Shown: piece after piece, positions 936-62,400 of the stretch
Layout of the letters: each line of letters begins with the position of its first letter
Position numbering within the stretch: the first letter of the stretch is position 1
DNA from: Odontesthes bonariensis
Taxonomy: Eukaryota; Chordata; Actinopteri; Atheriniformes; Atherinopsidae
Length of the DNA: 64,000 nt
Direction of reading: 5' to 3'
Assembly: GCF_027942865.1 (NCBI RefSeq)
Contig: NC_134523.1
Location: forward strand, 455,116 to 519,115
Position numbers and translations under genes: made by a program
The notes under the pieces: generated by a model
Told to the model about the DNA's origin: nothing
The model's input: only the letters and a program-made list of their open reading frames with translations
The model's database searches: none

Positions 936-3900
936 AATGTAATGTAACAGTAATGTAATGTAATGTAATGTAATAGTAATGTAATGTAATGTGATTTAAC
1001 AGTAATGTAATGTAATCTAATGTAATCTAATGTAACAGTAATGTAATGTAATGTAACAGTAAAGTAATGTAACAGTAATGTAATGTAATGTAACAGTAAT
1101 GTAATGTAATGTAATGTAACAGTAAAGTAATGTGATGTAACAGTGATGTAATGTGATGTAACAGTAATGTAATGTAATAGTAATGTAATGTAATCTAATG
1201 TAATCTAATGTAACAGTAATGTAATGTAATGTAACAATAAAGTAATGTAACAGTAATGTAACAGTAATGTAATGTAACAGTAATGTAATGTAATGTGATG
1301 TAATGTAATGTAACAGTAATGTAATGTGATGTAACAGTAATGTAATGTAATAGTAATGTAATGTAATCTAATGTAATGTAATGTAACAGTAAAGTAATGT
1401 AACAGTAATGTAATGTAACAGTAATGTAATGTAACAGTAATGTAACAGTAATGTAATGTAACAGTAATGTAATGTAATCTAATGTAATCTAATGTAACAG
1501 TAATGTAATGTAATGTAACAGTAATGTAATGTAACAGTAATGTAATGTAACAGTAATGTGATGTAATGTAACAGTAATGTAATGTAACAGTAATGTAATG
1601 TAACAGTAATGTGATGTAATGTAACAGTAATGTAATGTAACAGTAATGTAATGTAACAGTAATGTGATGTAATGTAACAGTAATGTAATGTAATGTAACA
1701 GTAAAGTATTGTAACAGTAATGTAATGTAACAGTAATGTAATGTAATGTAACAGTAATGTAATGTGATGTAACAGTAATGTAATGTAATAGTAATGTAAT
1801 GTAATCTAATGTAATGTAATGTAACAGTAAAGTAATGTAACAGTAATGTAATGTAACAGTAATGTAATGTAACAGTAATGTAACAGTAATGTAATGTAAC
1901 AGTAATGTAATGTAATCTAATGTAATCTAATGTAACAGTAATGTAATGTAATGTAACAGTAATGTAATGTAACAGTAATGTAATGTAACAGTAATGTGAT
2001 GTAATGTAACAGTAATGTAATGTAACAGTAATGTAATGTAACAGTAATGTGATGTAATGTAACAGTAATGTAATGTAACAGTAATGTAATGTAACAGTAA
2101 TGTGATGTAATGTAACAGTAATGTAATGTAATGTAACAGTAAAGTATTGTAACAGTAATGTAATGTAACAGTAATGTAATGTAATGTAACAGTAATGTAA
2201 CAGTAATGTAATGTAATGTAATATAACAATAATGTAATGTAATGTAATGTAACAGTAATGTAATGTAACAGTAATGTAATGTAATGTAACAGTAATGTAA
2301 CAGTAATGTAATGTAATGTAATATAACAGTAATGTAATGTAACAGTAATGTAACAGTAATGTAATGTAATGTAATGTAATGTAACAGTAATGTAATGTAA
2401 CAGTAATGTAATGTAATGTAACAGTAATGTAACAGTAATGTAATGTAATGTAATATAACAGTAATGTAACAGTAATGTAATGTAATGTAATGTAACAGTA
2501 ATGTAATGTAATGTAACAGTAATGTAACAGTAATGTAATGTAATGTAACAGTAATGTAACAGTAATGTAATGTAATGTAATGTAACAGTAATGTAATGTA
2601 ATGTAACAGTAATGTAATGTAATGTAACAGTAATGTAACAGTAATGTAATGTAATGTAATGTAACAGTAATGTAATGTAACAGTAATGTAACAGTAATGT
2701 AATGTAACAGTAATGTAATGTAACAGTAATGTAATGTAATATAACAGTAATGTAATGTAATGTAACAGTAATGTAACAGTAATGTAATGTAATGTAACAG
2801 TAATGTAATGTAATGTAACAGTAATGTAACAGTAATGTAATGTAATGTAACAGTAATGTAACAGTAATGTAATGTAATGTAACAGTAATGTAATGTAACA
2901 GTAATGTAATGTAATAGTAATGTAATGTAATGTAACAGTAATGTAATGTAATAGTAATGTAATGTAATGTAACAGTAATGTAACAGTAATGTAATGTAAT
3001 GTAATGTAACAGTAATGTAATGTAATGTAATGTAACAGTAATGTAATGTAATATAACAGTAATGTAATGTAATGTAACAGTAATGTAACAGTAATGTAAT
3101 GTAATGTAACAGTAATGTAATGTAACAGTAATGTAATGTAATAGTAATGTAATGTAATGTAACAGTAATGTAATGTAATAGTAATGTAATGTAATGTAAC
3201 AGTAATGTAATGTAATAGTAATGTAATGTAACAGTAAAGTATTGTAACAGTAATGTAATGTAACAGTAAAGTGATGTAATGTAACAGTAATGTAATGTAA
3301 CAGTAATGTAATGTAATGTAACAGTAATGTAATGTAATGTAATGTAACAGTAATGTAATCTAATCTAATCTAATGTAACAGTAATGTAATATAACAGTAA
3401 TGTAATGTAATGTAATGTAATGTAACAGTAATGTAATGTAACAGTAATGTGATGTAACAGTAACGTAATGTGATGTGATGTAATGTAACAGTAATGTAAT
3501 GTAATGTGATGTAATGTAATGTAACAGTAATGTAACAGTAATGTAATGTAATGTGATGTAATGTAATGTAATGTAACAGTAATGTGATGTAACAGTAATG
3601 TAATGTAATGTAATGTAACAGTAATGTAACAGTAATGTAATGTAACAGTAATGTAATGTAATGTGATGTAATGTAATGTAACAGTAATGTAACAGTAATG
3701 TAATGTAATGTGATGTAATGTAATGTAATGTAACAGTAATGTGATGTAACAGTAATGTAATGTAATGTAACAGTAATGTAATAGTAATGTGATGTAATGT
3801 AATGTAACAGTAATGTAATGTAATGTGATGTAATGTAATGTAACAGTAATGTAACAGTAATGTGATGTAATGTAATAGTAATGTGATGTAATGTAATGTG

Positions 3901-6867: not shown

Positions 6868-7124
6868 GACCAAGCCGGAGATGTACACAGCGTAACGTGA
6901 TGTTTCCTCAGCCCTCCTCTCTATGTACCTACACATGTTATACACCGTTGGAAAGCTAAAGCTCTTGAGATTTTTATGATGCGCCATTTCAAGATACAAT
7001 CATAACTGTGGACACAGTAAACACTTCGGTCAAACCAGTCGCAAATACAAAAAAACATGCAACTCACCTATGAAGCCTCACAGGATTCCAAGAACACCTA
7101 CAACTCCAACTCCTACTGTATTAA
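6868..7124. other. Short unique-looking spacer with a dispersed-repeat fragment
   Basis: A motif of about 30 bp beginning GGACCAAGCCGGAGA and ending CACAGCGTAAC lies right after the satellite. It recurs at 15742-15772, so it belongs to some dispersed repeat. No gene seen. Confidence 0.4.
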
Positions 7125-24372: not shown

Positions 24373-27234
24373 ATGGCTGTGTTCGAAACCGCATACTACT
24401 CCCACTACTCCCACTACTCCCACTACTCATACTAACTTTAACTTTTTTAAGTTCCCGGATGCATACTAGATTCTCCTAAATGTTGGGTATGCATCATGAG
24501 GTTACTACTCATACTCAAACTACCCAAGATGCAACGTAACGTGACGTCGCTGATTGTCATTTCCTGTCAAAACGGCAGTTTCAAGCTAGCTACTACGAGG
24601 GTAGGTTCACTTCCTGTTTTCAAAACAAAAGCACCAATTGTATGGTAATGGCTTTCCCTATGATAAAAGGCAACGGGTATTTTATTTTGTGAAAATAACC
24701 GGAAGTGCGTTGCTCACTGCGGCTAGCTTTAGTAGCGCCGAATTCGTGGGAACAAAATTGTAAACAGCCGGTATTTTGTCAGGTTTTCAACACGTTGGGG
24801 ATCTAAACGACTACTTTCTCTCCTGAAAATGTTTCAAATGTTGCTAAAGTTTACAGAGTTTAGAGCTTAAGAGAAATCAGCTTCAGGCCGGCTGATTTCA
24901 GCTCGGGCAGGAGCGAAATGCATTGTGGGTAAATGCTCTGCATACTGTCTGATCGATGAGTATGTAGAATGCAGTATGCAGTATGTAGTATGTAGTATGC
25001 AGTATGTAGTATGTAGTATGTAGGATGTAGTGTGTAGTATGTAGTGTGTAGTATGTAGTATGTAGTATGCAGTATGCAGTATGTAGTATGTAGTGTGTAG
25101 TATGTAGTATGTAGTGTGTAGTATGTAGTATGTAGTATGCAGTATGCAGTATGTAGGATGTAGTATGCAGTATGTAGTATGTAGTGTGTAGTATGCAGTA
25201 TGCAGTATGTAGTATGTAGTGTGTAGTATGTAGTATGTAGTATGCAGTATGTAGTATGTAGGATGTAGTATGCAGTATGCAGTATGTAGTACGTAGTGTG
25301 TAGTATGTAGTATGTAGTATGCAGTATGCAGTATGTAGGATGTAGTATGCAGTATGCAGTATGTAGTATGCAGTATGTAGTATGTAGTATGCAGTATGCA
25401 GTATGTAGTATGTAGTGTGTAGTATGTAGTATGTAGTATGCAGTATGCAGTATGTAGGATGTAGTATGCAGTATGCAGTATGTAGTATGCAGTATGTAGT
25501 ATGCAGTATGTAGTATGCAGTATGCAGTATGTAGTGTGTAGTATGTAGTATGCAGTATGCAGTATGTAGGATGTAGTATGCAGTATGCAGTATGTAGTAC
25601 GTAGTGTGTAGTATGTAGTATGTAGTATGCAGTATGCAGTATGTAGGATGTAGTATGCAGTATGCAGTATGTAGTATGCAGTATGTAGTATGCAGTATGC
25701 AGTATGTAGTGTGTAGTATGTAGTATGCAGTATGCAGTATGTAGTATGTAGTGTGTAGTATGTAGTATGCAGTATGCAGTATGCAGTATGTAGGATGTAG
25801 TATGCAGTATGTAGTAGGTAGTATGTAGTATGCAGTATGTAGTATGCAGTATGTAGTATGCAGTATGCAGTATGTAGGATGTAGTATGTAGTATGTAGTG
25901 TGTAGTATGTAGTATGTAGTATGTAGTATGCAGTATGTAGTATGCAGTATGTAGTATGCAGTATGTAGTATGTAGGATGTAGTATGTAGTGTGTAGTGTG
26001 TAGTGTGTAGTATGTAGTATGTAGTATGCAGTATGTAGGATGTAGTATGTAGTATGTAGTGTGTAGTGTGTAGTATGTAGTACGTAGTATGTAGGATGTA
26101 GTATGCAGTATGTAGTATGTAGTATGCAGTATGCAGTATGTAGTATGTAGTGTGTAGTATGTAGTATGTAGTATGCAGTATGCAGTATGTAGGATGTAGT
26201 ATGCAGTATGCAGTATGTAGTATGCAGTATGTAGTATGTAGTATGTAGTATGCAGTATGCAGTATGTAGTGTGTAGTATGTAGTATGCAGTATGCAGTAT
26301 GTAGGATGTAGTATGCAGTATGCAGTATGTAGTACGTAGTGTGTAGTATGTAGTATGTAGTATGCAGTATGCAGTATGTAGGATGTAGTATGCAGTATGC
26401 AGTATGTAGTATGCAGTATGTAGTATGCAGTATGCAGTATGTAGTGTGTAGTATGTAGTATGCAGTATGCAGTATGTAGTATGTAGTGTGTAGTATGTAG
26501 TATGCAGTATGCAGTATGCAGTATGTAGGATGTAGTATGCAGTATGTAGTAGGTAGTATGTAGTATGCAGTATGTAGTATGCAGTATGTAGTATGCAGTA
26601 TGCAGTATGTAGGATGTAGTATGTAGTATGTAGTGTGTAGTATGTAGTATGTAGTATGTAGTATGCAGTATGTAGTATGCAGTATGTAGTATGCAGTATG
26701 TAGTATGTAGGATGTAGTATGTAGTGTGTAGTGTGTAGTGTGTAGTATGTAGTATGTAGTATGCAGTATGTAGGATGTAGTATGTAGTATGTAGTGTGTA
26801 GTGTGTAGTATGTAGTACGTAGTATGTAGGATGTAGTATGTAGGATGTAGTATGTAGTATGTAGTATGTAGGATGTAGTGTGTAGTGTGTAGTATGTAGG
26901 ATGTAGTATGTAGGATGTAGTATGTAGGATGTAGTGTGTAGTGTGTAGTATGTAGTATGTAGTATGTAGGATGTAGTATGTAGGATGTAGTATGTAGGAT
27001 GTAGTGTGTAGTGTGTAGTATGTAGGATGTAGTATGTAGGATGTAGTGTGTAGTATGTAGGATGTAGTATGTAGTATATAGGATGTAGTATGTAGGATGT
27101 AGTATGTAGTGTGTAGTATGTAGGATGTAGTATGTAGGATGTAGTATGTAGTATGTAGGATGTAGTGTGTAGTGTATAGTATGTAGTGTGTAGTATGTAG
27201 TATGTAGTATGTAGTAGGCGGTTTCGAACACAGC
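24373..27234. mobile_element. Terminal-inverted-repeat element carrying a heptamer satellite
   Basis: The perfect inverted ends are GGCTGTGTTCGAAACCGC at 24373-24390 and its complement at 27217-27234. The left interior (to about 24950) is ordinary sequence and the rest is a 2.26-kb heptamer array. The same interior and ends occur reversed at 59101-60190. No transposase frame was seen, so the element is nonautonomous. No target-site duplication could be settled, and the superfamily is left open. Confidence 0.8.
24955..27216. repeat. 2.26-kb heptamer satellite (AGTATGT/AGTATGC)
   Basis: Seven-base units, mainly AGTATGT and AGTATGC with AGGATGT and AGTGTGT variants. Rare variants recur at multiples of 7: TACGTAG at 25291, 25599 and 26334 (308 and 735 bp apart) and GTAGTAGGTA at 25811 and 26546 (735 bp). 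The 777-codon minus-strand frame is an artefact: a 7-bp unit rotates through all frames and contains no stop. Confidence 0.95.
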
Positions 27235-30200
27235 CTTTGTCTATGATCTGCTCCCTCTATGCTGAAGTCAAACTCATTTCAACTTGGCCGCTACATTCTA
27301 TGGCGACACGTTGACATCCAATCAGAGGGAATGTGGCAGATCTCATCAAATCATTCACCTCAAACAAAACGCCAGATATTCAAGAATGGCTGCCTGAAGC
27401 GCTAAAGCGCCAAAATACAACAAATGTCCTCTCAGGAAATTTCAAATATACAGTCCAATTCAAGCCAATTACAATCAAATCCTTTGTAATACAATCAAAT
27501 TCAATTCAGTCCTGCCTCTTCATGCCTAAACACACAGATCTTCACCTGTTGTGCAACATTAATAAATTGTAAGGGAATATTTTTCTGTTACTGGAAGTCA
27601 ATTGTACATCTTTTTGTGTTTAATAGGTTAATTTATTCAAATTAGCAGCTGAAATGAGCTCCTATGCTAAGGATTCTTTTTTTAAACTGAACATTAGCTA
27701 CTCTGTTAGCTCAGAGAACTTTGTTGATTTTTTTTACTTTTTAAAAAAAATTATTTAGATTTTTATGAGCCCCAAAATATTAAAACTTAACCGACTTAAA
27801 GAAAAATGGTAATAATTTCCAATTTAATCATTTTTACTGATAAATAATTACTGACCGACTCATGTTAGCTTGAGTAGTAAGTTAGCAGCTAGCTTTCAAA
27901 CAGCTCTGCTAGCTAGTGAAATGCTAACATTACGGAGCTACCCTACATGCTACGTTAGTCTTTATCGTGGAATTTCATCCTTTATAACGGCTCATTTTGT
28001 GAACTAACTTTAAACAAGTGCCTGGTAAATTCAGGTTGTGTATTTTATTTACAGTAAGGGGACTTTTAGGAGGACAAAAAAGAAAAAAATATTTAATAAT
28101 ACTTTGGTAACAGGTGTTGCTTTCACTATTTTGTTTGTTCCACTGATGAAATGTTAGAATAAAAATGAAAAGCTCAATTATTATTATCCATTGCATGATG
28201 CAAAATCATATAAAGAAAAGAATAAGTAGCCTTTAAAGTCCTTTAAGTTGCAAAGACAAAAAAACAAAAGTCCAAAAAAGCTGGATTTCCTGTTCTACGA
28301 AACCAAAACAAAACATTTTTCCAGGTATGAAAACTCAACGCTTATAATCAAGAAAATAGTTTGGAGTGATGACCAAAGAGTCATGAAGACGGTTGTCTAA
28401 TGACTCAGGTACAGTTTACAGGTGTTCATTTGGACCACACCCAGAATGCTTCGTCACCGTGCACCTTGATGAGCGTACATGTTGGATTCCTGTCTGTCCT
28501 GCTGACAGATTTACGGCTTTGGGGCTGAAGCCAAACGGCATCTGTGTCCAGGGGTGGAGCAGCGATTTTAAATGTTCCAGGGGTGTTACATGAGCGCCAC
28601 ATGAAGCCCAGAGACACGACGCTGAAGTTGGCATCCGATTCACGAATTAAATGTATGGGCATAAAGGGCCATTTCACTGCATTTTTGCATTTTGATCGCC
28701 CTAAACTAGATCCTGTATGGAAACTACAATAGTTACACTGCTCAAATCTGGATGGAATTATTCTAAAGAGGGTACAGAGTCTTTAAAACACATTTTATGC
28801 TTTGTTAAAACTTTATTTGGTCCTGTACTTTACTCCCCAACATCCTCGTGGTTCCTTATGAGCAGAACCGGAAACCCTGTGAGTCACGAGAGCCGAGACT
28901 TTGTGTTTATTTTCCCTGAGGAAGAATGCAGGCGAGTGGCTGAGGTTTACAAACCAGATTATTTCATGATCACACGTCATAAAACTCAGTGGAATACGCA
29001 CGTAAGTAAGTGTTGAAGCTTTTACAGCCACAACTTATTAATTCAGCTATTATGAAGCAGCCTGGGGGCCTCTTATGGGCCCCCGCCACCTGAATCTGAG
29101 TTTTATGGTTTCTAAACTTACAAATTACTGCTTTCTCCTGAGCTGAAACACCCATTTAAAAACAGAAACTGCAGTGGGAGCGAGCATGTCAGTTCTGGTG
29201 GAGTTTTTACGCTGGATTAGTGACAGTTTGATGTCATTTCTCTTATTGTTTCTTTAGGTTTTATCCGCAGAGTTCAGCGTTTTGGCCCCTGACTTCCTTT
29301 GGGGCTTCATCTTTGAGTTTCCCTCGGGATTAATAAAATATCCATCTATCTTCTGTTGGTCTTTGGGGATTCTGAGTTGGTGGTCCAGACTTTCCATCAG
29401 CTAAAAATATTAAACCTGACAAAATTCGGCCCTTTAACACTGCGGACTGAAACAATAAAGCAGCTTTGTGTCGACCACGTTAGTTTGTAAGTGAAGCGTT
29501 ACCATAAATGCTCCCTGGAACAGTCACCACAGTGTTTGAGTGACGCCCCTTAAAAATACATCCAAATATATCACATGACCAACACTAAACATACAGTAGA
29601 TAAGACTAAAATATACTCTATATACACACAGGAGATGTAATGCCCTTTAAAAACGCATTAAAACCACCGTCAGGTCTATATAAAACATCCAGTTCTGAAT
29701 GTGGGAGGCCTGGAGCTGTGATGCATGCTGGGTTATATTATAATAATATTATAATTATAATGCAAAGTCAAAACCCTGTTAAAGAAAGAGTAAAAGAAAC
29801 ATTATTAAATATTCTCAGTCATCTCCTAAATAATTTCAGTGGGAAAAACTGCAAAACGTTTCTATTCAAATCAGTTTAATCATATTTTAAGTCATCTAAA
29901 AGGCACTTTAAAGAGAAAGTTTAATACAAGTATTACCATCTTTCAGACGTGCTTCGTTATGAGCCTTGTTTGCATAATTTGGTCATAACTACATCGCTTG
30001 AAATTAGCGTTCATTTAATATTAAACACTATGGATTTTATCGTGAGTATTCTGTCTCGTTTTATGCTAATTGTGTCGTTTAGTGACTCATTTATTTCAAG
30101 TGTGAAGACACTGCTGAGCTAATCCTACATTTAACCTGTTCTCATGACCTCAGCGCACCGCCTTCAGGCCCTTTGGTGAGTCATCAACACGCCGTTCAAA

Positions 30201-33044: not shown

Positions 33045-34032
33045 CAGAGGTGGCTAGTTACCAGTTATATTTACTCGAGTAAGTAAGAAAACATTATACT
33101 TCTAGGAGTAGTTTTAAATCTCTATACTTTTTACTTTTCCTTGAGTAGATGTGTGCAGCAGAAACTGTCCTCTTACTCCGCTACATTAGGCTACAATGAG
33201 CTGGTTACTTTTGTTCTTACCTCTTTGGTATTCTACGCCTCATTATTTTTATCCCCCCGCGTACGCCTCATTTTAATGTTTTATTCTGACAGAGAGAGAG
33301 ACTTCCGCCAAAGGCTCTACCACCTGACTGTGTTCCACCAATCAGACGCAGCCGTGCAGTCTGGTCACGTGACCGTACTCGATCTCAGCGGCGGGACGGG
33401 TTAGCTTTAGCATTAGCAGTCGTAGCAAACAAACAAAGAAACAGATGAAAAATGTCAGAACCAACGGTGGGAAATGAAGACGCAGACGAGGCCTCATACT
33501 GAAAGCATGTTTACCTTACAAAGAGTGAGAAACAGCAGCTACATTATGTGTCTTCTGTGGCAACCAAAACAAACGCACATTTCAGCAGAAACTCAACATC
33601 TAACCTGAGGAAACATGTAGCGCTAAGTTTCCTAAACTCGTTTTTCCCCCATGGATAGATGAATGTTTGTTTTTTAGGTTACATATGGGTTACATATGTT
33701 TTAAACATTTCCTAAGTCTCCTTTATTTTTTATTGAAGTACTTTAATTTACCTGGATTATTTTGATTTAAGCTATTTTGTAATTAATTCATTCATTTTAA
33801 TTTATTTGATCAATTGGATGAACTCTAATTGGCCTAAAGATGATTATTTAGTATGTTTGTCTGTCTGATTGAATGCTTGTGTTAACAAATAAATCAGACG
33901 GTACTCAACAGTTACTCAGTACTCGAGTAGTTTTTTCACAGAGCACTTTTTTACTCTTACTCAGGTAATTATTTGGATGACTACTTTTTACTTTTACTTG
34001 AGTATAATTTTTGGCTGCTCTGCCCACCTCTG
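33045..34032 (+). mobile_element. Tol2-like nonautonomous hAT element
   Basis: Ends are CAGAGGTGG and CCACCTCTG, followed inward by TACTCGAGTAAGTAA and TTTTACTTGAGTATAA, the ACTTGAGTA-rich subterminal pattern of Tol2-type hAT elements. A degenerate BED-finger stretch (STSNLRKHV in one frame near 33600) interrupted by stops lies inside. The flanking octamers ATGGTCTG and GTCGTGTG agree only partly, so the insertion looks old. Confidence 0.78.
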
Positions 34033-41120: not shown

Positions 41121-41479
41121 CATTTTTCTTTTATTGTTTTCAATTGTTCGATTGTGTTTGTTCTTAAAGCTGCTGATAGGATTACAGCTCTTAATGTTAT
41201 CGGGCAGCGACACGGTCTCCGGTTGAAGAAATTCTTCCTGGATTTGATGAATTCCTCTGAGTTAAAGTTAATAAAGTGACGCAGCAGAGGAGGGGCTCGG
41301 CTGTTTTAGATTTAAAACATAAGACACGTTTTTAAAAATAGTTTTCAAATTCTTAAAATTCTCCAGAATCTCATCGCAGAGATGTTTTTGTTCATGAGCT
41401 TAAATGGAGACTCCAGTGGTTCGGTTTCCCCGGCTTCTCCCCAGCATGTGGGTACAGTGTGACGTCTGTGAGAGAATGC

Positions 41480-41630
41480 ATGAAGTATGCAGTATGCAAT
41501 ATGCAGTATGTAGTATGCAGTATGCAGTATGTAGTATGCAGTATGTAGTATGCAGTATGTAGTATGCAGTATGCTGTATGTAGTATGCAGTATGTAGTAT
41601 GCAGTATGCAGTATGTAGTATGCAGTATGT

Positions 41631-41664
<34 letters not shown>

Positions 41665-41854
41665 TAGTATGTAGTATGCAGTATGTAGTATGCAGTATGC
41701 AGTATGTAGTATGCAGTATGTAGTATGCAGTATGTAGTATGTAGTATGCAGTATGTAGTATGCAGTATGTAGTATGCAGTATGCAGTATGTAGTATGCAG
41801 TATGCAGTATGCAGTATGTAGTATGCAGTATGTAGTATGAAGTATGCAGTATGT

Positions 41855-41890
<36 letters not shown>

Positions 41891-43903
41891 ATATGCAGTA
41901 TGTAGTATGCAGTATGCAGCAAGGCAGGAATTTCACGAGGGCCACGAGGGCCATGGCCCTCGTGCCCTCCCACTTTGGCCTTGTGCCCTTGAAAATTATA
42001 TCTGCCATAAGGCCACAGTGGCCTTGATGCCCTCTCTGACTAAGTTTTGCGGTTTAGCAGTCTGCCTCTTTTCTGACACGGCTTCAATGATCAATGAGCA
42101 TCTGGTGGAGAAAAAAAAAAATCAGCGGTGCGCTTAATTCGAGCCTGGAATACACCGCTCGGACGGTCTATGATGACAGTTGACATCAGTCTATCTCCGC
42201 CCACCCCCTCACGCGTCCGTGTGCATAGCCAGCTGATTCTCCGCTCAAGAAAAGGCTGAGGTGAGGTAAGGTTTTGTGATGATCCTGTTTGCCGTTAAGT
42301 TTTTCATTTGTCCAGCTTTAAGTGTAATTTTATGGATAACATTACTATTTCTTGCTCGTATGGTAATACATAATTATAATATTTTGAAGTGTTTTTGTTA
42401 CTACTTGGATAAGTTACGTTGCAGTTAGCTAACAGCTAGGCAGTTAGCGCTGTGTTGTTAGCTGTCAAAGACTTCTGTGCAGACTAGGTTCGTTTGCTGC
42501 TCGTTTATCCAGGGCTCTAAATTAACACCCGCCAAATGCGGGTGAAAGTTATTTTTGGCGTGTATTAAAAAAAACTCACTTGCCGGCTTGGCCGATGATA
42601 AATGAGGAACTTTACCATCTATTTCGCGGGACGCGCGAGCGCAGTTTCTATGGGAACGCATAGAAACCGCCGAGGCTGCCGTACTAGGGGAGTGGGTCAC
42701 TCTGGTTTGGAAATACAATAGACGCCGGTGTTCAGTCGATTTCTCCTACTTGTCGAGAATTACTACTTTGTGCATGCGCCGAGCCGATTTTCTAAGTTTC
42801 GTTTTCACGCCAATAATGTTTTGCGACCCTGCGTCTGATTATTTTCTCTTTTGGAAGACATGCAAAGTAATAAAACACTTAGGCCTATCGTATTAACAAG
42901 CAGTTAGCTTATGCACAAATGGGGTGTCATTCACCATTTGATTTTTGTATTTGGGACACTTCTGTCTTTATTTAGGTGACTCTGCTCCATCATTGTGAAT
43001 GAATGCATTGAGAAGGGGGAGCATTATTTGACAGCATGTTATTGGTACAAATACAGACGCAAACACTAACAAAATGTGGCGATGGTTGGGACAGCCGGCC
43101 GCGAAGAGAAAAGATATGCCTGCCAAAGGAGGGGAGGAGGATGATATTTTGAATATATTGAATCTGGCATGGTGACAGCTTGCGCACACGCCGGCCACAC
43201 TTTGTGAGAAAAGGGAAAAATGGAACTGATTTAGATGGATCCGAAGACAGTTCAGAGAGCTTGGACGATGTTTAAGCATTTCACAGTATCCATAATTCCA
43301 TAATTAGTCTCTGCACATAGTTTTGTGTTTAATTTTGTGCATTATCTGCACTAAAACATGATTAGAAAGTTGTTAAATATTTCCATTTTTGTAGATTCAG
43401 GGTTCACATGAATATAAATCAGTTTTAAAGTTATTTTTTTATGTACAAAAAATGTGACCCTGAATAGTATGCGAGGGTTGAGGAGTAATGAAATGTTAGA
43501 ATAAGTTTTGTATGTACATAAGTTTAATTGCAATTTGGTCCATTGAATGCTTAATAAGTGTATATATAAAAGTATTGTAAATGCATATACAATCGTAGTC
43601 ACTTCATATCATATGTTAAATCATTGTTTTAATTTATGGCCTTGGTGCCCTGGCTTTTGGCCTTTGTGCCCTTAAAAAATTGACAACTCAAAAGGCCAAG
43701 TGGCCTTGCCCCTAAAATGACGAAATTCCAGGCCTGGTATGCAGTATGTAGTATGCAGTATGTAGTATGCAGTATGTAGTATGCAGTATGTAGTATGTAG
43801 TATGCAGTATGCAGTATGTAGTATGCAGTATGCAGTATGTAGTATGCAGTATGTAGTATGCAGTATGTAGTATGCAGTATGTAGTATGCAGTATGCAGTA
43901 TGT

Positions 43904-43937
<34 letters not shown>

Positions 43938-43994
43938 TAGTATGCAGTATGTAGTATGCAGTATGCAGTATGCAGTATGTAGTATGCAGTATGT

Positions 43995-44035
<41 letters not shown>

Positions 44036-44036
44036 T

Positions 44037-44077
<41 letters not shown>

Positions 44078-44186
44078 TAGCATGCAGTATGCAGTATGCA
44101 GTATGTAGTATGCAGTATGCAGTATGCAGTATGTAGTATGTAGTATGCAGTATGCAGTATGTAGTATGTAGTATGCAGTATGTAGC

Positions 44187-44217
<31 letters not shown>

Positions 44218-44283
44218 TAGTATGCAGTATGCAGTATGCAGTATGTAGTATGCAGTATGTAGTATGCTGTTTCGAACACAGCA
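41480..44283. repeat. Heptamer satellite split by a 1.8-kb insertion
   Basis: AGTATGC/AGTATGT arrays run at 41484-41919 and 43738-44265. The right block ends in CTGTTTCGAACACAGC, the terminus of the element family at 24373-27234. The middle is a separate insertion. No matching left terminus is visible near 41480. Confidence 0.85.
41920..43737 (+). mobile_element. 1.8-kb element inserted into the heptamer array
   Basis: Termini are GGCAGGAATTTC (41923) and GAAATTCCAGGCC (43722), roughly complementary, each followed inward by GGCC-rich stretches with TTGTGCCCTT. An internal plus-strand stretch near 43072-43170 reads MWRWLGQPAAKRKDMPAKGG, resembling the N-terminus of some hAT-type transposases, and is then cut by stops. 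The segment around 42510-42780 (CTCTAAATTAACACCCGCCA) looks like another repeat. Superfamily uncertain. Confidence 0.55.
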
Positions 44284-44285
44284 AA

Positions 44286-45350
44286 AGTCCACTGAACATT
44301 TCACGTTAGCATCTTAATGGATCTGTAGGCATGTTAGCTGAGAAGCTAGCAGAGAACACGTCAGATTACTCGAGTAATCGATGGAATAATTGACAGAATA
44401 CTCAAATAACTAATGGTTTGCTGCAGAGTTTAGTCTGATCTCCCAAACTGATCCGGAAACAGTCGGCAGGACAGAATCTGTGGATCTCAGTGATCAGTAG
44501 GTAAGAAAGTTCATTAGCTTCATCGTTAGCTTAGCAGGATTTCACAGGTTTTACTGTCCTTAAAAGACATCTGAGGAACATTAACGTTATCCATCATTCT
44601 GCTGAAGAAGACTTTTACTGGGAAAATGTTTCCTTAGGTCATGAATAAAGTTTGAACTGGACTTTTAAAGTGATGGGGGATATTTGTTGTGATTCGATGC
44701 TGAAACAAAGTGAAATATTTGCTTTTAGTCACGAAACTCCAAACTGCCCAACGAAGGACGTGAGAAGAGCTGAAAATACTGATATTTTTAAGCTAAAATG
44801 GTTTCATTCAGTCTGGTTTTTGCACATTATTTATTATTTTGTCTCTTTATTCACATCACTGATCATAACTGAATCATTTCACACAGCATCTGATTTACCT
44901 TTCATTATTTTAACCACTGCCTGCTGCCGCCTGCCGACAGCCGCGCCTGTTACGGTCTTTGCTGCTCGCTCTGCACAGCAGGCAGTGATACGAAGGGAGA
45001 GAAAATAGGGCCAAGAGATTGTGAGCTCTGGCTTTTTCCTGGAGAACCATTTTGTGATGCAAATGTATTACTCTGTTGAACGCATATTGTTTTGAGAAGC
45101 AAAACGCTTTATTTTTTAAACCCCAGCCAACTAGCCGGACTACCTTCATCAACACCAAAACGAGGCTGGAACTCTGCTCACAGGACGCAGCAGGGGGTAA
45201 GAAGATGTTCAGAAATGATGCTGCTGATATGGGATGTCATACAGTCAGAAGAGGCGAACTGTCCCTTTAATGTATGACTGTTGGAGCTGCTCTGAGCAAC
45301 AGTCTCTGAGCTGTGAACATACACCAGAACCATCAGCACACGCCTGCAGA
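44286..45350. other. Non-coding region, no gene recognised
   Basis: No splice-supported frame found. GAGAACCATTTTGTGATGCA near 45040 has the look of a dispersed repeat but was not assigned. Confidence 0.4.
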
Positions 45351-53300: not shown

Positions 53301-54903
53301 GAAGGAGCTGCTGGAGATGTCGTCCTTGTAGATTTTGTTGGTGCTCTCCAGGAACAAAGTCTCGTTGGGCGACATCTTGTGGAAAACAACCTGAACAGAG
53401 GCGATAAAAGTCGCTGTGAGTGTCGGTTCCACCGGAGAAAAACAGGATCAATAAACTGATGAATAAACTGATCGATCAGGACCGCAGGGACAGCGGCGCT
53501 GATTCTGCATCAGACTGATCAGAAAACATCCCTCCTGTCGTCCTGTTTAACCCTCCTGTTGTCCTGTTTAACCCTCCTGTCGTCCTGCGGGTCCAAAGTG
53601 AGCCACCACCATGTTTAGCTGCAGAAAAAATACCTTAAACTATCTTTTTCCAACTTGAAATGTTATGACTTTTCCTAAAGGGACCCCATCATTAGAAAAA
53701 GTCAGACTTTATGTTTGTTTATGTTTCCATGTGGGCTGTACACCACTAGGGTACAAAGATTGTCTTTTGGGTCATTTTTGACCCGTGAATTATAAAAACA
53801 TTTAAACAGCAGAAAAAAGTTCAGTTTTTTTACTGTTTTTTTTTAACTGTTTTTAACTGTTTTTTTCCCTTTCAATATAATTAATTTAGAAGTAATTACT
53901 TCACATTTATATAATAGCAATAATAAACCTTTATTATGTAAAAGAAAACTGAGAAAACAAGAAAACTGTTGGTCCAGCTGACAGTTGGTTTGTGGTAAAA
54001 AAAAAAGTGTAATCCTGAAAACTGGTGATTGTCTTTTTGTATTGTGTAACATAAAATACATGATAAAAATGTATTGAATTGAGCTGAATAGATAAATAAC
54101 AGGTGGTTTCATCATACAAAATAGATTTTGGATTTAAAGTTCAATTAAGTTGCTTTATTTTGGGGCTTTGGTAGGGCGGGGCATTTCTGACCCAAAGGAC
54201 AAAGGGAGTAAACACAATGTTAAGACCGTATAAAGGGTTAATACTCTGTTATATGTACATTTGGTACAGCTGTATTCTTGTTTTTATCTTGTTGTAAAGC
54301 ACTTTGAGTACCATTTGGCTCTTGTAAAGGGCTATATAAATAAAGTTTGATTGATTGATTGATTGAGCTGCAATAATTACTGTTAAAACTTTATTGATAA
54401 TGTGATATTTTGTATATCCTGTTCTTATCTGCAACACCCGGCTTTAATCAAACTATTTCCCTTGCAGGATCAATAAAGTCTTAATCTGTTATAAAGTACA
54501 GTAAATGTGTTGCCAACCCTGAATGTTTCTGTTTAGTGACCTCTGACCCCTGGGCCCTTTGGGCTCACATTGTTGGTAAAGCTACTCATCATAAATGAGG
54601 CTTAAAGTAACACAGACCCATAAACTACAGCTTCATCCACCTCTGAACAACCTGTGTGAGTGCGTGTCAGTGTTTTCTGTGCGTGTCGGTGATCGGGAGC
54701 GAGCTCCGTGCCTTCTGGATGGAGGACTTCCCGCTGCGCCTCAGCCCCATCAGGAGGATCCTCGGCCGGTCAGCGGAGGAGTCCAGCCCCGGCTCCAGCT
54801 CCGGTTCCTCCGCACCGTAGCCGAAGCTCTTCGGGAAGGAGCCCACCACGTCGTAGCTGCCGGCCAGAGCGGCGGCGGCGGCGGCGTCGTACTGGATGTT
54901 CAT
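50354..54903 (-). CDS. rragc: Ras-related GTP-binding protein C (RagC)
   Basis: RagC pairs with RagA/B on the lysosomal surface and recruits mTORC1 when amino acids are plentiful. Seven minus-strand exons: 54712-54903, 53187-53390, 52916-53115, 52703-52817, 52217-52359, 51995-52137 and 50354-50511 (1155 bp, 384 aa; human RRAGC 399). The G-domain includes the P-loop GLRRSGKSS (residues 53-61), WDFPGQ (100-105) and HKVD (163-166). A roadblock-type C-terminal domain follows. The N-terminus [18 protein letters not shown] separates RagC from RagD. The start MNIQYD at 54903 parallels the mammalian start. Intron 1 has a GC rather than GT donor (54710-54711); the other donors are GT. The C-tail after HEVFEVG is unlike the human tail. 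Intron 4 is almost entirely an R1 retroposon copy. The gene is head to head with ppt1. Confidence 0.96.
50751..51060. mobile_element. Possible MITE-like fragment in rragc intron 6
   Basis: Starts CTAGGGCTGGGTATCG followed by several ATCGATTCGATT motifs, as in a common class of teleost hAT-like MITEs. The far end could not be placed. Confidence 0.4.
51120..51722. mobile_element. MITE with about 55-bp terminal inverted repeats (rragc intron 6)
   Basis: Left end CATGGCTCTGAAAGGATCAG with ATTATTGGCTAAATTACAAT inside. The right end is its near-complement (TTGTAATTTAGCCAATAAT at about 51684, ending CAGGGCCATG). The interior has no transposase. Total length about 600 bp. Confidence 0.8.
52385..52660 (-). 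mobile_element. R1 retroposon copy filling rragc intron 4
   Basis: Reverse-strand copy of the repeat at 23140-23400, starting at its AAATCAAATCAGATTTATTT tail. The intron is only 343 bp (52360-52702), so this insertion makes up about four fifths of it. Confidence 0.75.
53549..54240. mobile_element. R2 repeat copy in rragc intron 1
   Basis: Starts TTAACCCTCCTGTTGTCC (the first unit is itself tandemly repeated) and ends TATAAAGGGTTAA, so both ends carry TTAA with CCC/GGG. It contains GGGTCATTTTTGACCCG. TTAA ends suggest a piggyBac-type nonautonomous element, but this is inference from the ends only. Confidence 0.6.
54285..54368 (+). mobile_element. L2-type LINE tail (rragc intron 1)
   Basis: GTAAAGCACTTTGAGTACC, GGCTATATAAATAAAG and a TTGATTGATTGATTGA tail. 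Confidence 0.6.
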
Positions 54904-55316
54904 GCCGCAGGTCGGAGCCCGGCCCGCTGGTTCTGGAAGCTCCGGCTGGAACAAACCGAACCATCCGACAGGAATGTTGTTGTTGTTGTTGTTTTGCAAC
55001 CAGCTAGCATGGTAAGCTAGCTCGGGTTCCGTCGTCTGGTGATTACGTCACACAATATGGCTGTCCGCTTGAATAGGAGTACATTGTGATTGGCTGTACG
55101 TCTGTACGTCGGACAGTTGTGATTGGCTGTAGTAGCCATAGTAACCGTAACTAGGCGCTGTGCGTTGGAGAGTTGTTTTTTTTCTCGGTCTTTCGGTGAT
55201 CGGCAGCAGCTATGGAGAGCTTTTACGAAGAAATTACACTACAATATACATACATAAAGTCTAAGTAAATAAAACAAATACACAAACTGAAAAAAATAGC
55301 TTAAAGAAATGGCTTG

Positions 55317-55317
<1 letters not shown>

Positions 55318-55384
<67 letters not shown>
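55318..55384. repeat. (TATC)n microsatellite
   Basis: About 16 perfect tetranucleotide units in the rragc-ppt1 spacer. Confidence 0.97.
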
Positions 55385-55454
55385 GGTAAGCTAGCATGGT
55401 AAGCTAACCCGCTGCGCCGTGTTCACATAACGGAACAGCAGCTCAGACCCAAAC

Positions 55455-55627
55455 TGGCCTGTAAGCCCCTCCCCTCGCTTCTGATTGGCCGCTTGCTCCA
55501 AACATTTAAGACACTGGCACGTAGCCCCTCCCCTCGTTTCTGATTGGCCACTTGCTCCAAACATTTAAGTCACTGGCACGTAGCCCCTCCCCTCGTTTCT
55601 GATTGGCCGCTCGCTCCAAACATTTAA
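55455..55627. promoter_or_regulatory. Triplicated CCAAT/GC-box module, 59-bp period
   Basis: Three copies of a segment with CCCCTCCCCTCG, TTCTGATTGGCC and GCTCCAAACATTTAA. ATTGG occurs at 55484, 55543 and 55602, exactly 59 bp apart. NF-Y binds CCAAT and Sp/KLF factors bind CCCCTCCC-type boxes, so each copy is a complete small promoter module. Confidence 0.7.
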
Positions 55628-55637
55628 CTCACGTGAC
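55628..55637. promoter_or_regulatory. CLEAR-type TFEB/MITF E-box
   Basis: CTCACGTGAC matches the CLEAR consensus GTCACGTGAC at 9 of 10 positions and contains the full TCACGTGA palindrome. It lies just downstream of the CCAAT module, between two genes of lysosomal function. Binding is inferred. Confidence 0.6.
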
Positions 55638-55977
55638 AAGCAGTCCAAGTGCCAAGCAGGAAGGAAGGCAAAGCGGTGAGTAATGTTTCTTAAGATTTTA
55701 TAACACTGTAAAATGCCGTTAAAAGTCCTTATTTTGAAACTTTGCCCTTTTTTTATAAAAGCATTTGTTGGACTTAAACGTTACGTAGAGCAGAAAGCTG
55801 CTTCCACGCGTTTAAATATGGATTTATTTGTTGTAAATCTGCAGTTTTTAGCTGGTTGGAGCTAATTTTACGAGTGGATTAAAGGCTGAGTTTTTACCTC
55901 TTTCTTAGGGAAAACTTTTTTATTCTCACCCTGCTTTGATTGCTTACAGTTTTATCGTCCACAAAGCTGTGAGATTT

Positions 55978-56260
55978 ATCAAATCAAATCAAATTTATTT
56001 ATACAGCACATTTCATGTACAAACAATTGAAAGAGCTTTACATAAAATAAAAGCATTGCAGCAGGGAGAGGAAGAAGCATTAAAATACATAAAAGAATAC
56101 AAAGAGAAACAAATAAAATAATTTTAAAACCAGCAACAGTCCAGATAAGTTCAAAGATATCGTGCAGATTTCATGCATAGACACATGAGAACAGAAATGT
56201 TTTTAACCTGGAATTAAAAATGTCTCCATTTGGTGAAAGTTTAATCTCCACTGGCAGTTT
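55978..56260 (-). mobile_element. R1 retroposon copy upstream of ppt1
   Basis: Reverse-strand copy of the repeat at 23140-23400. It begins AAATCAAATCAAATTTATTT and runs to CCATTTGGTGAAAGTTTAAT. Confidence 0.75.
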
Positions 56261-56428
56261 GTTCCACTTGTTTGCAGCATAACAGCTAAATGCTGCTTAT
56301 TTATTAGAGTTCTTGTAGAAACTCTGCTCTGAGGCGGATTGGAGGGTTTTTGTTCCGCTCTGAGGGCAGTTCCTGCTGCCTCTGGGTGGCTTTAAGCTCC
56401 TCACAGGGAGCAGAAACCAGAACTGATC

Positions 56429-59400
56429 ATGTGGGTGATCACCAGTTTCAGGATGGCTGTGTTCCTGGTTCTCCTCCTGGCTGCTCCGGTGCTGCTGGTC
56501 GCCTCTGGCCCGGTTCGTGACCCCAACAATGGGACCGTTCCTCTGGTGCTGTGGCATGGGATGGGTGAGTAACCACGGATATATAAATATATGGAAAACA
56601 TGCATTTGAACACGTTACTTCCCTTTCTGAGGGATTAGTGTAACCAGGGGCCTCCTGGGGCTTTAAATGGGCCCTAATGTTATGGTTCTGTGCAGGATAA
56701 GTGAACGTTTAGTGAACTTAATGGACATTATCCCCAGATGTTGGGTTCATTCGGACAGAAATCCTGTTTTCTGTCTGTCACACTGTGTTATCTTTGCTGT
56801 TTTTCACACATGCAGCTAAAGAAATGGGAACAAATCTTAATTCCAGTCTAAAACCCACAAAGAGCTTCTAGATTATTCATTTCTGCTGGCATAAAACACT
56901 TTAATCATTTCATTTATATTAATTGTTCCATAATTAGTCATTAGATTATATCTTATATTCCTTTTTAAGCTTTAAATTGAATCTTATTTACTTTTTCTTG
57001 ATGTTGAATAACATATAATTCTTATTATTTTCTGTTTTTTCCTACTTTTAGACGTGATAATGTTCATTATTTTGGGATTAGGATTTTTTTTAAACTGAAT
57101 TTCTTATATTAATTTGACTCTTTTGGTAACTGAAAGCAGTTTAAATGTAAATGTACAAAAAAGTTGAAACTATGAAGCTGTTTTTCACAGATGCAGCTAA
57201 AGAAATGGGAACAAATGATGTGTCTGTGTGAGTTTTCTCAAAGTTTTCTGTAAAAGTTGTGTAAAGTTGGCAGATTTACATGGAATAAGCAGAAGTTGGG
57301 TGGTTTGTAACAGCAGTGATGAGGCTGAGATCTCAGCAGGATTTTCAGGAAGCTGTTTCTCACTCGGGTGAGATCAGAAAAGATACCTGAAACATAATTT
57401 TATTCCCACGTTGGCTGTGGAAGTGAAAAAGAGAAACGCTCTTGTCCTGTGTTGACTTCATAATCAGATCAGTTGGTTGATTATTCACCAGAAAATGAAG
57501 CCTTTTGGGTCATTTTCGTGTCAAACGTTCCCAGGATGATTTCAGGTGTCTCACTGATGGTAACGTGTCAGTTGGTTGATTGTTCACCAGTAACGTGCAC
57601 GTGTGTCCTCCAGGTGACAGCTGCTGCAACCCGCTCAGCATGGGCGCCATAAAGAAGATGATCCAGGAGGAGATCTCTGGCATTTACGTGCTCTCGCTGA
57701 TGATCGGGAAAAACGTGCTGCAGGTACCGTGAAGCCTTCCATCAACGTTCAGACCTGATAAACGTCTCATCCAATCACAGCTTCTTTCCTGTGGTGCGTT
57801 TATAGAAAAAGATGCTCAGTGTAAGACATTAGTTTGACTAACTATAAAATGAAACCTGTAGAAACATTGTAGAGCCGTTTAAGCAGCGTATTACTCCGTT
57901 TAATGTTTGAGTAAACCTGTTTGTTCTTGCTGAGGGTGGGAGGATGATGCTGTGGGCTCACCTGAGGTCTTTGTAAATGTTCTGTCCAGGTCAGGTCCTC
58001 CCTGATGAGGAAACCCAGAAAGCTTCAGCTAACAAAGTAATGTGGGAACAATGATGTTCATCTTTCAGAAAGGAGCAGCAATAACCTTCATTAGCTAAGC
58101 TGTTAGCGTTAGCTGCTGCTAAAGGAGAAAATAACTCAATAAATAAACCATGAGTTATTTCTCAGATGCTTCCATTTCCCTGCTCTGGAGTTCAGGCTCT
58201 GAGAGTTGGAACCGATCCCTCTTTGTGGCTCAGCTTCTTCAGTCCAGCGTTGAACTGGAGCGAGTTGTTAAAACAGTGGGATGAAAACTGGCTGCTGCAC
58301 ATTTACAGTCTTTAGCTAACTCTGCTGGAACATTAGCCTCAGATAGAGTTCATCCACTTTTTACACTTCAGAAGCCCTGATATATGCTCCCAGGAACAGG
58401 AAGAAGGAGTTTTACACCTCAGACGCCCTGATATATGCTCCCAGGAACAGGAAGAAGGAGTTTTACACCTCAGACGCCCCGATATATGCTCCCAGGAACA
58501 GGAAGAAGGAGTTTTACCCAATCTTTCACCTTTAACTCCTATCTGTTTTTTGTTTTTTTTTGTCTGTTATGTAATCCCATCAGAGCTCCTCTCTGGGCTC
58601 TCCTTGTGCTTCTGGTTCTGAGGCTTTAACCTGTCGTTTCTCTGCAGGACACAGAAAACGGGTTTTTCCTGGACGTGAACGAGCAGGTGTCGATGGTGTG
58701 CAGTCAGCTGGCTCAGGACCCGAAGCTGCAGGGAGGATACAACGCCATGGGCTTCTCCCAGGGGGGGCAGTTTCTGTACGTGGCCGTTTGATTCTCCCGA
58801 GTCGGTCCGGCCCGTCCTTCGTCACATGTTCTGATTCCTCTCTCCGCAGGAGAGCCGTGGCTCAGCGCTGTCCTTCTCCACCAATGAGAACCCTGATCTC
58901 CGTCGGCGGTCAGCACCAAGGTGAGGTTTTACTCCCTGTGAGTGTTTCTGCTCTCTCATCGTGTGTCCAACACCTGTGTCTGTGCTCGCTCAGGTGTGTA
59001 CGGGCTGCCCAGGTGTCCCGGGGAGAGCTCCCACATCTGCGACATGATCCGCGAGGCCCTGAACAGGGGCGCCTACAGCGACCTGGTCCAGAAACAGTAA
59101 GTCTGTGTTCGATACTGCATACTACATACTGCATACTGCATACTGCATACTACATACTGCATACTACATACTGCATACTACATACTACATACTGCATACT
59201 ACATACTGCATACTACATGCTGCATACTGCATACTACATACTGCATACTACATACTACATACTGCATACTACATACTGCATACTACATACTGCATACTAC
59301 ATACTGCATACTGCATACTACATACTGCATACTACATACTACATACTGCATACTACATACTGCATACTACATGCTGCATACTGCATACTGCATACTACAT

Positions 59401-62400
59401 ACTACATACTGCATACTGCATACTGCATGCTGCATACTGCATACTACATGCTGCATACTGCATACTGCATACTGCATACTACATACTGCATACTGCATGC
59501 TGCATGCTGCATACTGCATACTACATGCTGCATACTGCATACTACATGCTGCATACTACATACTGCATGCTGCATACTGCATACTACATGCTGCATACTG
59601 CATACTACATACTACATACTACATACTGCCTACTGCATACTCATCGATCAGACAGTATGCAGAGCGTTTACCCACAATGCATTTCGCTCCTGCCCGAGCT
59701 GAAATCAGCCGGCCTGAAGCTGATTTCTCTTAAGCTCTAAACTCTGTAAACTTTAGCAACATTTGAAACATTTTCAGGTGAGAAAGTAGTCGTTTAGATC
59801 CCCAACGTGTTGAAAACCTGACAAAATACCGGCTGTTTACAATTTTGTTCCCACGAATTCAGCGCTACTAAAGCTAGCCGCAGTGAGCTAACGCACTTCC
59901 GTTTATTTTCACAAAATAAAATACCCGTTGCCTTTTATCATAGAGAAAGCCATTACCATACAATTGGTGCTTTTGTTTTGAAAACAGGAAGTGAACCTAC
60001 CCTCGTTGTAGCTAGCTTGAAACTGCCGTTTTGACAGGAAATGACGATCGGCCACGTTACGTTGCATCTTGGGTAGTTTGAGTATGAGTAGTAACCTCAT
60101 GATGCATACCCAACATTTAGGAGAATCTAGTAATCAAACTCGCATACTAACTCAGAAAGTTAGGAGTAGTATGCAGTTTGGAACACATCCAGAGTCTGCT
60201 GCGAGCAGGCGGCGCCTTCACCTCCTCAGGTGAGTAACGGTTTTTGTGTTGTCAGCCTGGTGCAGGCGCAGTACTGGCACGACCCGCTCAACGACGACCT
60301 GTACAAGAAGCACAGCCTGTTCCTGGCCGACATCAACCAGGAGAGGGTGAGTGAAGACCTAATGACTCAGATCATTTACTGGTGTTTGTGGATCGGCCGA
60401 AGTCATGAATCAGAAACATGTTTGGGTTCTACGGAAGCCCAGAGCGGACGTGCTACGTATAAACTGTCTGATGGTTTTCGAGGCCACTTTTTCTCCCCAG
60501 TCCGCCCCTGTTTATATGCGTTTGTAATATGTTTGTGATCCTGCTGAGTCAACTTCATCAGTGACCGGCTGAGGGGACCAGGCCGTCTCCATGGTTACCG
60601 AATGATGCGGTGCCGTTATCGTTTTCTCGAGATAACGAGATAAATAACTCGTTATCTCGAGAAAATGAAATACTCGTCACACCAGCGGGATTTGCTTTGT
60701 GTTCGGAGAATCTAGTATGCATCCGGGAACTTAAGAAAAGTTAAAGTTAGTAGGAGAAGTATGCGGTTTGGAACACATCCAGTGTTTGTGTTCACACGGA
60801 TGTAAATGTGTTGTCTGCCCCGGTGTCTCAGGCTGTGAATGAGACCTACAGGAAGAACCTGCAGCTGCTGGAGAAGTTCGTGATGGTGAAGTTCCTGCAG
60901 GACACCGTGGTGGACCCCGTGGCCTCGGAGGTAAGCCTCCATCTGCCCTAACTTCCTGTGATGAAACCTCAGAACTCAGACTCTCTGACTCTGCTCGCAG
61001 TGGTTCGGCTTCCTGAAGACGGGTCAGGCCAAAGAGACGGAGACTCTGCAGGAGAGCGTCCTCTACAAAGAGGTAAGCTGCCCCGAAGCATGTTTCATCT
61101 CACCATAACTGCTGGAGTAACGCAGCCATTACAAAATAAAAGCCTGAGAGCGACAGACTTTTACAAAATAAAAGCCTGTGAGCGACAGACTTTTACAGAA
61201 TAAAAGCCTGTGAGCTACAGACTTTTACAAAATAAAAGCCTGTGAGCAGCAGACTTTTACAAAATAAAAGCCTGTGAGCAGCAGACTTTTACAATAATAA
61301 AATAAATAATAAAACAGGGTGGTCCGTGGCGTAGTGGGCTGAGCAGGCGCCCCATGTACAGAGGCTACAGTCCTCGCTGCAGCTGGTCCCGCATCGGACG
61401 GCCCTTTGCTGCATGTCGTTCCCCCTCTCTCTGTCCCCTGCTTCCTGTCTCTCTGAACTTTCCATTAAAGGCACTAAAGTCCTAAAAGAAATAAAAACTG
61501 CATTAATGCACGATAAAATATTAATCAGTGTTAAATAATAACGAGTTAACTCGCCCAGCCCTAGTTTTTTTTTTTTAATTGAATTGAATTGAATTTTATA
61601 TTTCATCTAAAACTGGTGAAATGCTTCTGAATTGCACCTAAATGAAATAAATAAATGGTTTACCATTCAAGCAGTTTTCCCTGTAATATTATTATGATTG
61701 CAAAGGACTACATTTTGTTGCACTTCTTTCTAAAAACGTGTTGAAACTCGCCGTATGAGCGCATTAAGATTTCCAATTCCAGGTTGGTGAAAAACGTAGC
61801 CCCTCCTCTCCCCGTTGCCATGGTGACTCATCAAATCGGGGCTCCATTGATGCTGGTTTTTTTTGTTTTTTTTTAAAGTTGTGGCTCAAAACTCAACTCA
61901 AACTTTATTTATAGAGCACATTTAAAAAACAACCGAGGTTGACCAAAGTGCTGTACAGGATAAAAGCGACTCATAATGCTACCGTTCCAAGCAGTTAAAA
62001 ATCAATAGATACTAAAACACAGTGCAATAAAATAAAGATATAAAACAAATCAAGGTTATCAGCCAAGACTCTACTTCTAACAGTTCTATTTAGCTGTGCA
62101 TATGACACCTGAAAGTATTTTATCTGCACTCTTCACTTTTAAATGAATTAATGATTATTTTTAATGTTTTTTTTTTTATTTCTTTTCAATGATTTTATTG
62201 CCTTCTTGTGATTTTATGTAGCTGTAAAGCACTTTGAATTACCTTGTGTACGAATTGTGCTCTATAAATAAAATGGCCTTGCCTACTTAATTATGATTAA
62301 AAGCCAGGGCTCTAAACTCAAAGTGAACCTACTCAGAGGTGACTAAACTCACTCATCAGCGTTTCTGGAACCGAAAATTGAGTTTTCCATCTCAGAGTTC

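What the first reader, a model, noticed from the sequence alone, without database searches (positions are those of the whole stretch)
54904..56428. rragc and ppt1 share a head-to-head promoter with a CLEAR-type E-box
Seen: CTCACGTGAC at 55628-55637 lies between the divergent starts of RagC and PPT1. Known: TFEB/TFE3/MITF bind GTCACGTGAC (CLEAR) and activate lysosomal genes, and RagC controls TFEB through mTORC1. Inference: one element could control both a lysosomal hydrolase and the GTPase that restrains its activator, forming a physical feedback unit. In human the two genes lie in the same band but, to my knowledge, are not adjacent.
Basis: partly seen in the sequence, partly recalled or inferred. 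Interest (0 to 1): 0.75.

Follow-up and report, generated by a model that had tools for sequence, protein, structure and literature searches.

The report
E-box at a fish PPT1 promoter
In this fish the genes for the lysosomal enzyme PPT1 and the nutrient-signalling protein RagC start back to back, and the DNA switch between them sits near the start of PPT1 and looks like an ordinary lysosomal-gene switch for PPT1 rather than proof of a shared feedback unit.

Summary
It is the only CACGTG in the spacer; TCACGTGA appears in about 1% of shuffled spacers and 0.1% of shuffled ppt1-proximal segments.

The E-box ends 38 nt before a good splice donor, so it lies in or at an inferred noncoding first exon of ppt1. 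It is 725 bp from the rragc ATG. rragc has its own cluster (two CAGCCAATC boxes, TGACGTAA). A second rragc copy on contig C6 keeps a similar CCAAT pair and has no CACGTG in 6.58 kb upstream, though it has a TCATGTG at -259 and E-boxes in intron 1.

Indirect conservation: predicted PPT1 N-terminal extensions of Conger and Ophioblennius (2 of 21 extension-bearing relatives) contain SRD and HVT, peptides that TCACGTGAC can encode, at a similar place.

PPT1 as a TFEB target and TFEB raising RagD/RagC are published, so the loop is known in trans. Best reading: a MiT/TFE (or USF) site of ppt1; an effect on rragc is untested. The genome's excess of perfect GTCACGTGAC is repeat-borne in the small sample examined.

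The parts
54712..54903 (-). rragc coding exon 1 (ATG at 54903; followed by an apparent GC donor, AAG|GCACGG)
55043..55050 (-). TGACGTAA (CRE/ATF-like), rragc-proximal
   Evidence: motif name recalled
55084..55131 (-). two copies of TACAGCCAATCACAA (CCAAT boxes, 33 bp apart), rragc-proximal; a similar pair 31 bp apart at the C6 rragc copy
55317..55384 (.). (TATC)17 microsatellite between the two promoter clusters
55453..55631 (+). three tandem units of about 59-60 nt starting with ACTGGC, each with CCCCTCCCC (GC box) and ATTGG (inverted CCAAT); the search of 55386-55700 found no other copy in the genome
55628..55637 (.). CTCACGTGAC, CLEAR-type E-box, at the ppt1-facing edge of the tandem array; absent from the other two units
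55632..55675 (+). inferred 3' part of noncoding ppt1 exon 1 (start site unknown), ending GCG|GTGAGT
   Evidence: sequence inference; no transcript data
55676..56406 (+). inferred ppt1 intron 1, ending CTCACAG|GG
55976..56251 (+). interspersed repeat copy inside inferred ppt1 intron 1, 91-92% identical to two others in the window
56407..56564 (+). ppt1 exon 2: 22 nt of leader, ATG 56429 / ATG 56453, signal peptide to HGMG

Best explanation
The E-box is the proximal MiT/TFE-class (TFEB/TFE3/MITF, possibly also USF) site of ppt1. It sits at or just inside ppt1's noncoding first exon, downstream of a small tandem array of GC and CCAAT boxes that would drive basal transcription. TFEB binding there would raise ppt1 during starvation. 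rragc is driven mainly by its own CCAAT/CRE cluster, about 500-580 bp from the box; any TFEB effect on rragc through this box is secondary. The two genes probably became neighbours in the fish lineage. Shown: positions, motif, splice signals, promoter-like pieces, the two rragc copies. Inferred: start sites, binding, direction of control.
For: Single TCACGTGA in the spacer; 0.1% of shuffled proximal segments hold one. A strong donor 38 nt after it and an acceptor at 56406 give a leader that stays open in the PPT1 frame and reads ...SRDKQSK...ELI-M. Conger conger P0065 begins MSRDAEL...SN-M: SRD in the same frame, 25 codons before its methionine against 23 here (31 to ATG 56453). Ophioblennius P0023 has MSPDHVTKRS...LK-M: HVT, 19 codons before, in another frame. 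A review places CLEAR sites mostly within 200 bp of the start (PMC6003119, passages). PPT1 is stated to be TFEB-upregulated (PMC7593845, passages). The C6 rragc keeps the CCAAT pair with no CACGTG in 6.58 kb upstream, and its head-to-head partner is a mycbp-like gene, not ppt1.
Against: No transcript, ChIP or orthologous DNA was available, so start sites and conservation are indirect. Peptides do not fix DNA: HVT also fits CATGTGAC, and SRD has many codings; SRD occurs 4 times and HVT once in all 42,264 residues of the 137 proteins, these two included. 19 of 21 extension-bearing relatives hold neither tripeptide before HGMG. The C6 rragc copy has TCATGTG at -259 and, in intron 1, GTCACGTGTT (+1419) and GTCATGTGAA (+554) read on the other strand, so rragc may have its own E-box input. 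A box about 500 bp from the rragc cluster could still act on it. In mammals other factors are reported at the PPT1 promoter: Nrf2 at -1,269 (PMC7593845) and repressive c-JUN (PMC13045223) (passages). The decamer has one mismatch to CLEAR.
Confidence: 0.62

Rival explanations
1. A shared bidirectional promoter: the one E-box drives both ppt1 and rragc under TFEB, a physical feedback unit.
For: Head-to-head genes with promoter-like clusters about 320 bp apart; RagC mRNA rises with TFEB overexpression in mammals, less than RagD (PMC6551658); a RagC query of the genome returned matches at two loci only, so an rragc copy could carry the TFEB response.
Against: The box is ppt1-proximal and 725 bp from the rragc ATG; rragc has its own cluster; the C6 copy has no CACGTG in 6.58 kb upstream. 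Its TCATGTG at -259 and intron-1 E-boxes cut both ways: rragc may answer TFEB without the ppt1 box.
Confidence: 0.19
2. The E-box is a general USF-type (or other bHLH) basal promoter site, with no special TFEB or starvation role.
For: TCACGTGA flanks suit USF as well as MiT/TFE (recalled, no call); it is placed beside GC and CCAAT boxes as in housekeeping promoters.
Against: Next to a lysosomal gene that is stated to be TFEB-responsive in mammals (PMC7593845, passages).
Confidence: 0.13
3. Chance hexamer in a spacer; no function.
For: CACGTG itself is at background in the window and occurs in 15% of shuffled spacers; two TCACGTGA in a window this size are reached by 14 of 100 shuffles; the array and microsatellite show fast turnover.
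Against: The extended 8-mer in the proximal segment is found in 0.1% of shuffles, though the segment was chosen afterwards; fitting peptides at a similar place in two distant teleosts, where about 0.13 such tripeptides are expected in 319 extension residues from the codon rates.
Confidence: 0.06

Closest known systems
CLEAR element (GTCACGTGAC) of lysosomal genes, bound by TFEB/TFE3 (PMC7815692, PMC6003119, passages seen)
   Same: TCACGTGAC, next to a lysosomal hydrolase gene, at its inferred first exon
   Different: C instead of G at position 1; binding not shown; start site inferred
MiT/TFE-RagD-mTORC1 feedback loop (PMC6551658, part 1 of 2 read)
   Same: Same pathway: a TFEB-type site near a RagC/D gene
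   Different: In mammals the direct target shown is RagD through its own promoter site; here the nearby gene is rragc and the site is at its neighbour ppt1
Divergent (bidirectional) gene pairs
   Same: Head-to-head genes with promoter-like clusters less than 1 kb apart
   Different: Two separate clusters split by a microsatellite; the second rragc copy faces another gene (mycbp-like)

Membership tests
CLEAR element | CACGTG core with T/A flanks (TCACGTGA) | tested here: met
CLEAR element | Full decamer GTCACGTGAC | tested here: not met
   CTCACGTGAC, 9 of 10; so I call it CLEAR-type, not a proven CLEAR element
CLEAR element | Within 200 bp of the transcription start of a lysosomal gene | tested here: inconclusive
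   38 nt before an inferred exon-1 donor of ppt1; no transcript data
CLEAR element | Bound and activated by TFEB/TFE3 | not testable with these tools
   needs ChIP or reporter
CLEAR element | Conserved in related species | tested here: inconclusive
   peptides SRD/HVT at a similar place in 2 of 21 extension-bearing PPT1 proteins; orthologous DNA was not searched
Bidirectional promoter | Divergent genes, starts within 1 kb | tested here: inconclusive
   ATGs 1526-1550 bp apart; promoter-like clusters about 320 bp apart; starts not mapped
Bidirectional promoter | Shared control elements and co-expression | not testable with these tools
   sequence shows separate clusters; expression needed
TFEB-RagC/D feedback loop | An E-box of the TFEB/MITF type close to the rragc start (within 700 bp upstream of the ATG) | tested here: not met
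   no CACGTG, CATGTG or CACATG from 54904 to 55627; the C6 copy does have TCATGTG at -259

The most novel reading that the evidence does not exclude
In this fish genome a RagC query finds two rragc copies and no third RagC/D-type locus. The copy that became the divergent neighbour of ppt1 may have gained extra TFEB responsiveness from the ppt1 E-box and taken over the feedback role that RagD has in mammals: a regulatory take-over by gene adjacency after gene duplication, with the C6 copy as a twin wired differently.
Probability: 0.1. Interest if true: 0.7.

Novelty: new member of a known kind. Interest (0 to 1): 0.33.

Why it matters
As an ordinary CLEAR-type site it extends the known lysosomal control network to a named spot in a silverside-like fish. 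If the box also drives rragc, the C23/C6 rragc pair would be a natural experiment: similar proteins, one promoter beside a perfect-core TFEB-type site and one with weaker sites only, making it directly testable whether chance neighbourhood can wire a feedback loop.

Tried and rejected
Shared ancestral element: not supported, because the C6 rragc copy has a CCAAT pair but no CACGTG in 6.58 kb upstream and faces a mycbp-like gene; on re-checking I found that this copy has TCATGTG at -259 and E-boxes in intron 1, so I lowered the best explanation from 0.66 to 0.62 and the novel case from 0.12 to 0.10, and raised the three rivals slightly. Repeat origin of the ppt1 E-box: not found; 55386-55700 matched only itself in the genome search (which skips very common words), and it does not fall in the sampled repeat families that carry GTCACGTGAC. 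More extension-bearing relatives: a search with P0023 residues 1-45 returned only itself; a full search with P0065 listed its best 120 of 2240 and added 17 proteins with no further SRD/HVT extension. P0126 holds SRD, but its N-terminus is not extended (42 residues to HGMG), so it counts as background. The 10 of 137 proteins without HGMG were left out of the count. Lemur P0133 (RSCDTAK-M) would fit TCATGTGAC but is too degenerate to count. Human UTP11 gave no significant match in the window. An error of mine: one search ended exon 1 one base too late and put HVT in the PPT1 frame; one search corrects this (SRD is in frame). Whether rragd is truly absent stays open: the Rag family search did not complete.

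Full report
What is there. The window is part of a 945 Mb genome. Its PPT1 is 95% identical to that of Leuresthes tenuis over 92% of the query, the best of the listed hits, so a silverside relative is likely (inference). rragc lies on the minus strand with ATG at 54903, and its recognisable exons run down to about 50.45 kb. ppt1 lies on the plus strand, with recognisable coding exons to about 62.6 kb. Pfam and PDB comparisons agree with both identities. To the left, around 12.6-13 kb on the minus strand, is a LIM-domain exon closest to FHL3 among solved structures. To the right of the window is a CAP gene on the minus strand, probably cap1. The ppt1 protein query matched exons on contig C23 only, at this place.

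The E-box. CTCACGTGAC is at 55628-55637 and is the only CACGTG of the spacer. The hexamer alone is unremarkable (10 in the window, 9.6 expected). The extended TCACGTGA is rarer: 0.98% of 20,000 shuffles of the spacer and 0.10% of shuffles of 55440-55676 hold it (the second segment was chosen after seeing the site). In the whole genome CTCACGTGAC occurs 427 + 455 times.

Anatomy. Upstream of the box lie three tandem units of 59-60 nt beginning ACTGGC, each with a GC box and an inverted CCAAT. Aligned on that start, units 1 and 2 end where the next ACTGGC begins, and only the last unit runs on into ACGTGAC. The box therefore straddles the end of the array and is present once. The box ends 38 nt before GCG|GTGAGT at 55675/55676, and a possible acceptor CTCACAG|GG lies at 56406/56407. 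Another donor-like site, at 55396, scores slightly higher (8.99 against 8.82). The spliced leader stays open in the PPT1 frame...[38 protein letters not shown], where SRD is TCACGTGAC. The inferred intron holds an interspersed repeat copy, 55976-56251. On the rragc side are two CAGCCAATC boxes 33 bp apart and TGACGTAA, at -226 to -140 from the ATG, with no CACGTG, CATGTG or CACATG up to 55627. A (TATC)17 tract lies in the roughly 320 bp between the two clusters.

Related sequences. I had no orthologous fish DNA, so I used predicted proteins whose start codon lies in the leader. Of 137 PPT1 relatives fetched in two searches that each list the best 120, 127 keep HGMG and 21 of these have at least 47 residues up to it. 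Two of the 21 hold a peptide that TCACGTGAC can encode: Conger conger P0065, MSRDAELAFYFKELLSDLHSHGKPSN-MSALS, and Ophioblennius macclurei P0023, MSPDHVTKRSAAKEDLLHAHSLK-MSATLL. The peptides start 25 and 19 codons before the next methionine, against 23 codons here to ATG 56429 and 31 to ATG 56453; the Conger frame is the same as here, the Ophioblennius frame is not. With uniform codons about 0.13 such tripeptides are expected in the 319 extra residues (rates; product mine). The other 19 give no support. This is suggestive, not proof.

The second rragc. A RagC query returned 14 matches at two loci, C23 (this one) and C6. The C6 protein starts MSIQYEVEQLADSYGVADSFPKDFGYG and is RagC-like. Upstream of it, head to head with 1080 bp between the ATGs, is a gene that I name mycbp from recalled sequence; its only PDB match is a flagellar-associated protein and Pfam gave none. 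Beyond it is a connexin gene (Pfam). From memory, RRAGC-MYCBP-GJA9 is also the human neighbourhood, and human RRAGC and PPT1 are about 1.2 Mb apart. The C6 promoter has two CCAAT boxes 31 bp apart, and no CACGTG occurs in the 6.58 kb fetched upstream. The two promoters are otherwise hardly alignable. Against a clean contrast: the C6 copy has TCATGTG at -259 and, in intron 1, GTCATGTGAA (+554) and GTCACGTGTT (+1419) on the other strand. So the ppt1 partnership belongs to one copy, but E-box input to rragc as such is not excluded for either.

Mechanism. I think the box is ppt1's MiT/TFE-class site (0.62). Sources for the network: CLEAR and its position (PMC7815692, PMC6003119; passages), PPT1 as a TFEB-upregulated gene (PMC7593845, passages), RagD direct and RagC weaker (PMC6551658, part 1 of 2), and TFEB upregulating RagC/D (PMC11237164, passages). 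Nrf2 and c-JUN are also reported at mammalian PPT1 promoters (PMC7593845, PMC13045223; passages). A shared unit remains possible (0.19). The listings, of open-licence PMC papers only, showed no paper whose title or abstract reports the rragc-ppt1 pair; I did not read those papers in full.

Side result. The perfect decamer GTCACGTGAC occurs 4868 times in the genome against 1364 for its reversed control. Of 23 sites examined, out of the first 24 listed on contig C1, 19 fall into four repeat families. So in that small sample perfect CLEAR decamers mostly mark repeats; the ppt1 site is not in those families.

Verdict. Observation confirmed, interpretation partly supported. The site is an ordinary kind of element in an unusual, probably lineage-specific neighbourhood.

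Noticed in passing
G000 contig C1, loci L001-L004 and L014-L032: The perfect CLEAR decamer GTCACGTGAC is in excess (4868 sites) and 19 of 23 sampled sites sit in four repeat families, so repeated DNA may have spread TFEB-type sites through this genome.
   Followed up: partly
window 33364-33373: A perfect GTCACGTGAC just after a CCAAT box in a CpG-richer stretch; by eye the sequence after it could be the start of a hAT/BED-type element. No extended match to the four sampled families.
   Followed up: partly
G000 C23 and C6: The RagC query returned two RagC-type loci and no third RagC/D-type locus; rragd may be missing in this fish or below the search's reach.
   Followed up: partly
L045/L048, C6 rragc copy: The second rragc copy has TCATGTG at -259 and E-boxes in intron 1 (GTCATGTGAA at +554, GTCACGTGTT at +1419, read on the other strand).
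   Followed up: partly
window 54712 / 54711: rragc intron 1 appears to use a GC donor (AAG|GCACGG) with a weak consensus.
   Followed up: no
window 1205-6999, 24860-27278, 41345-42053, 43629-44313, 59063-59740: Large arrays of short repeats open in several frames; the last one lies between ppt1 exons.
   Followed up: no
L048 521-1601: The C6 rragc copy is head to head with a mycbp-like gene; recalled human order has the two on the same strand, so a local inversion may have happened.
   Followed up: no
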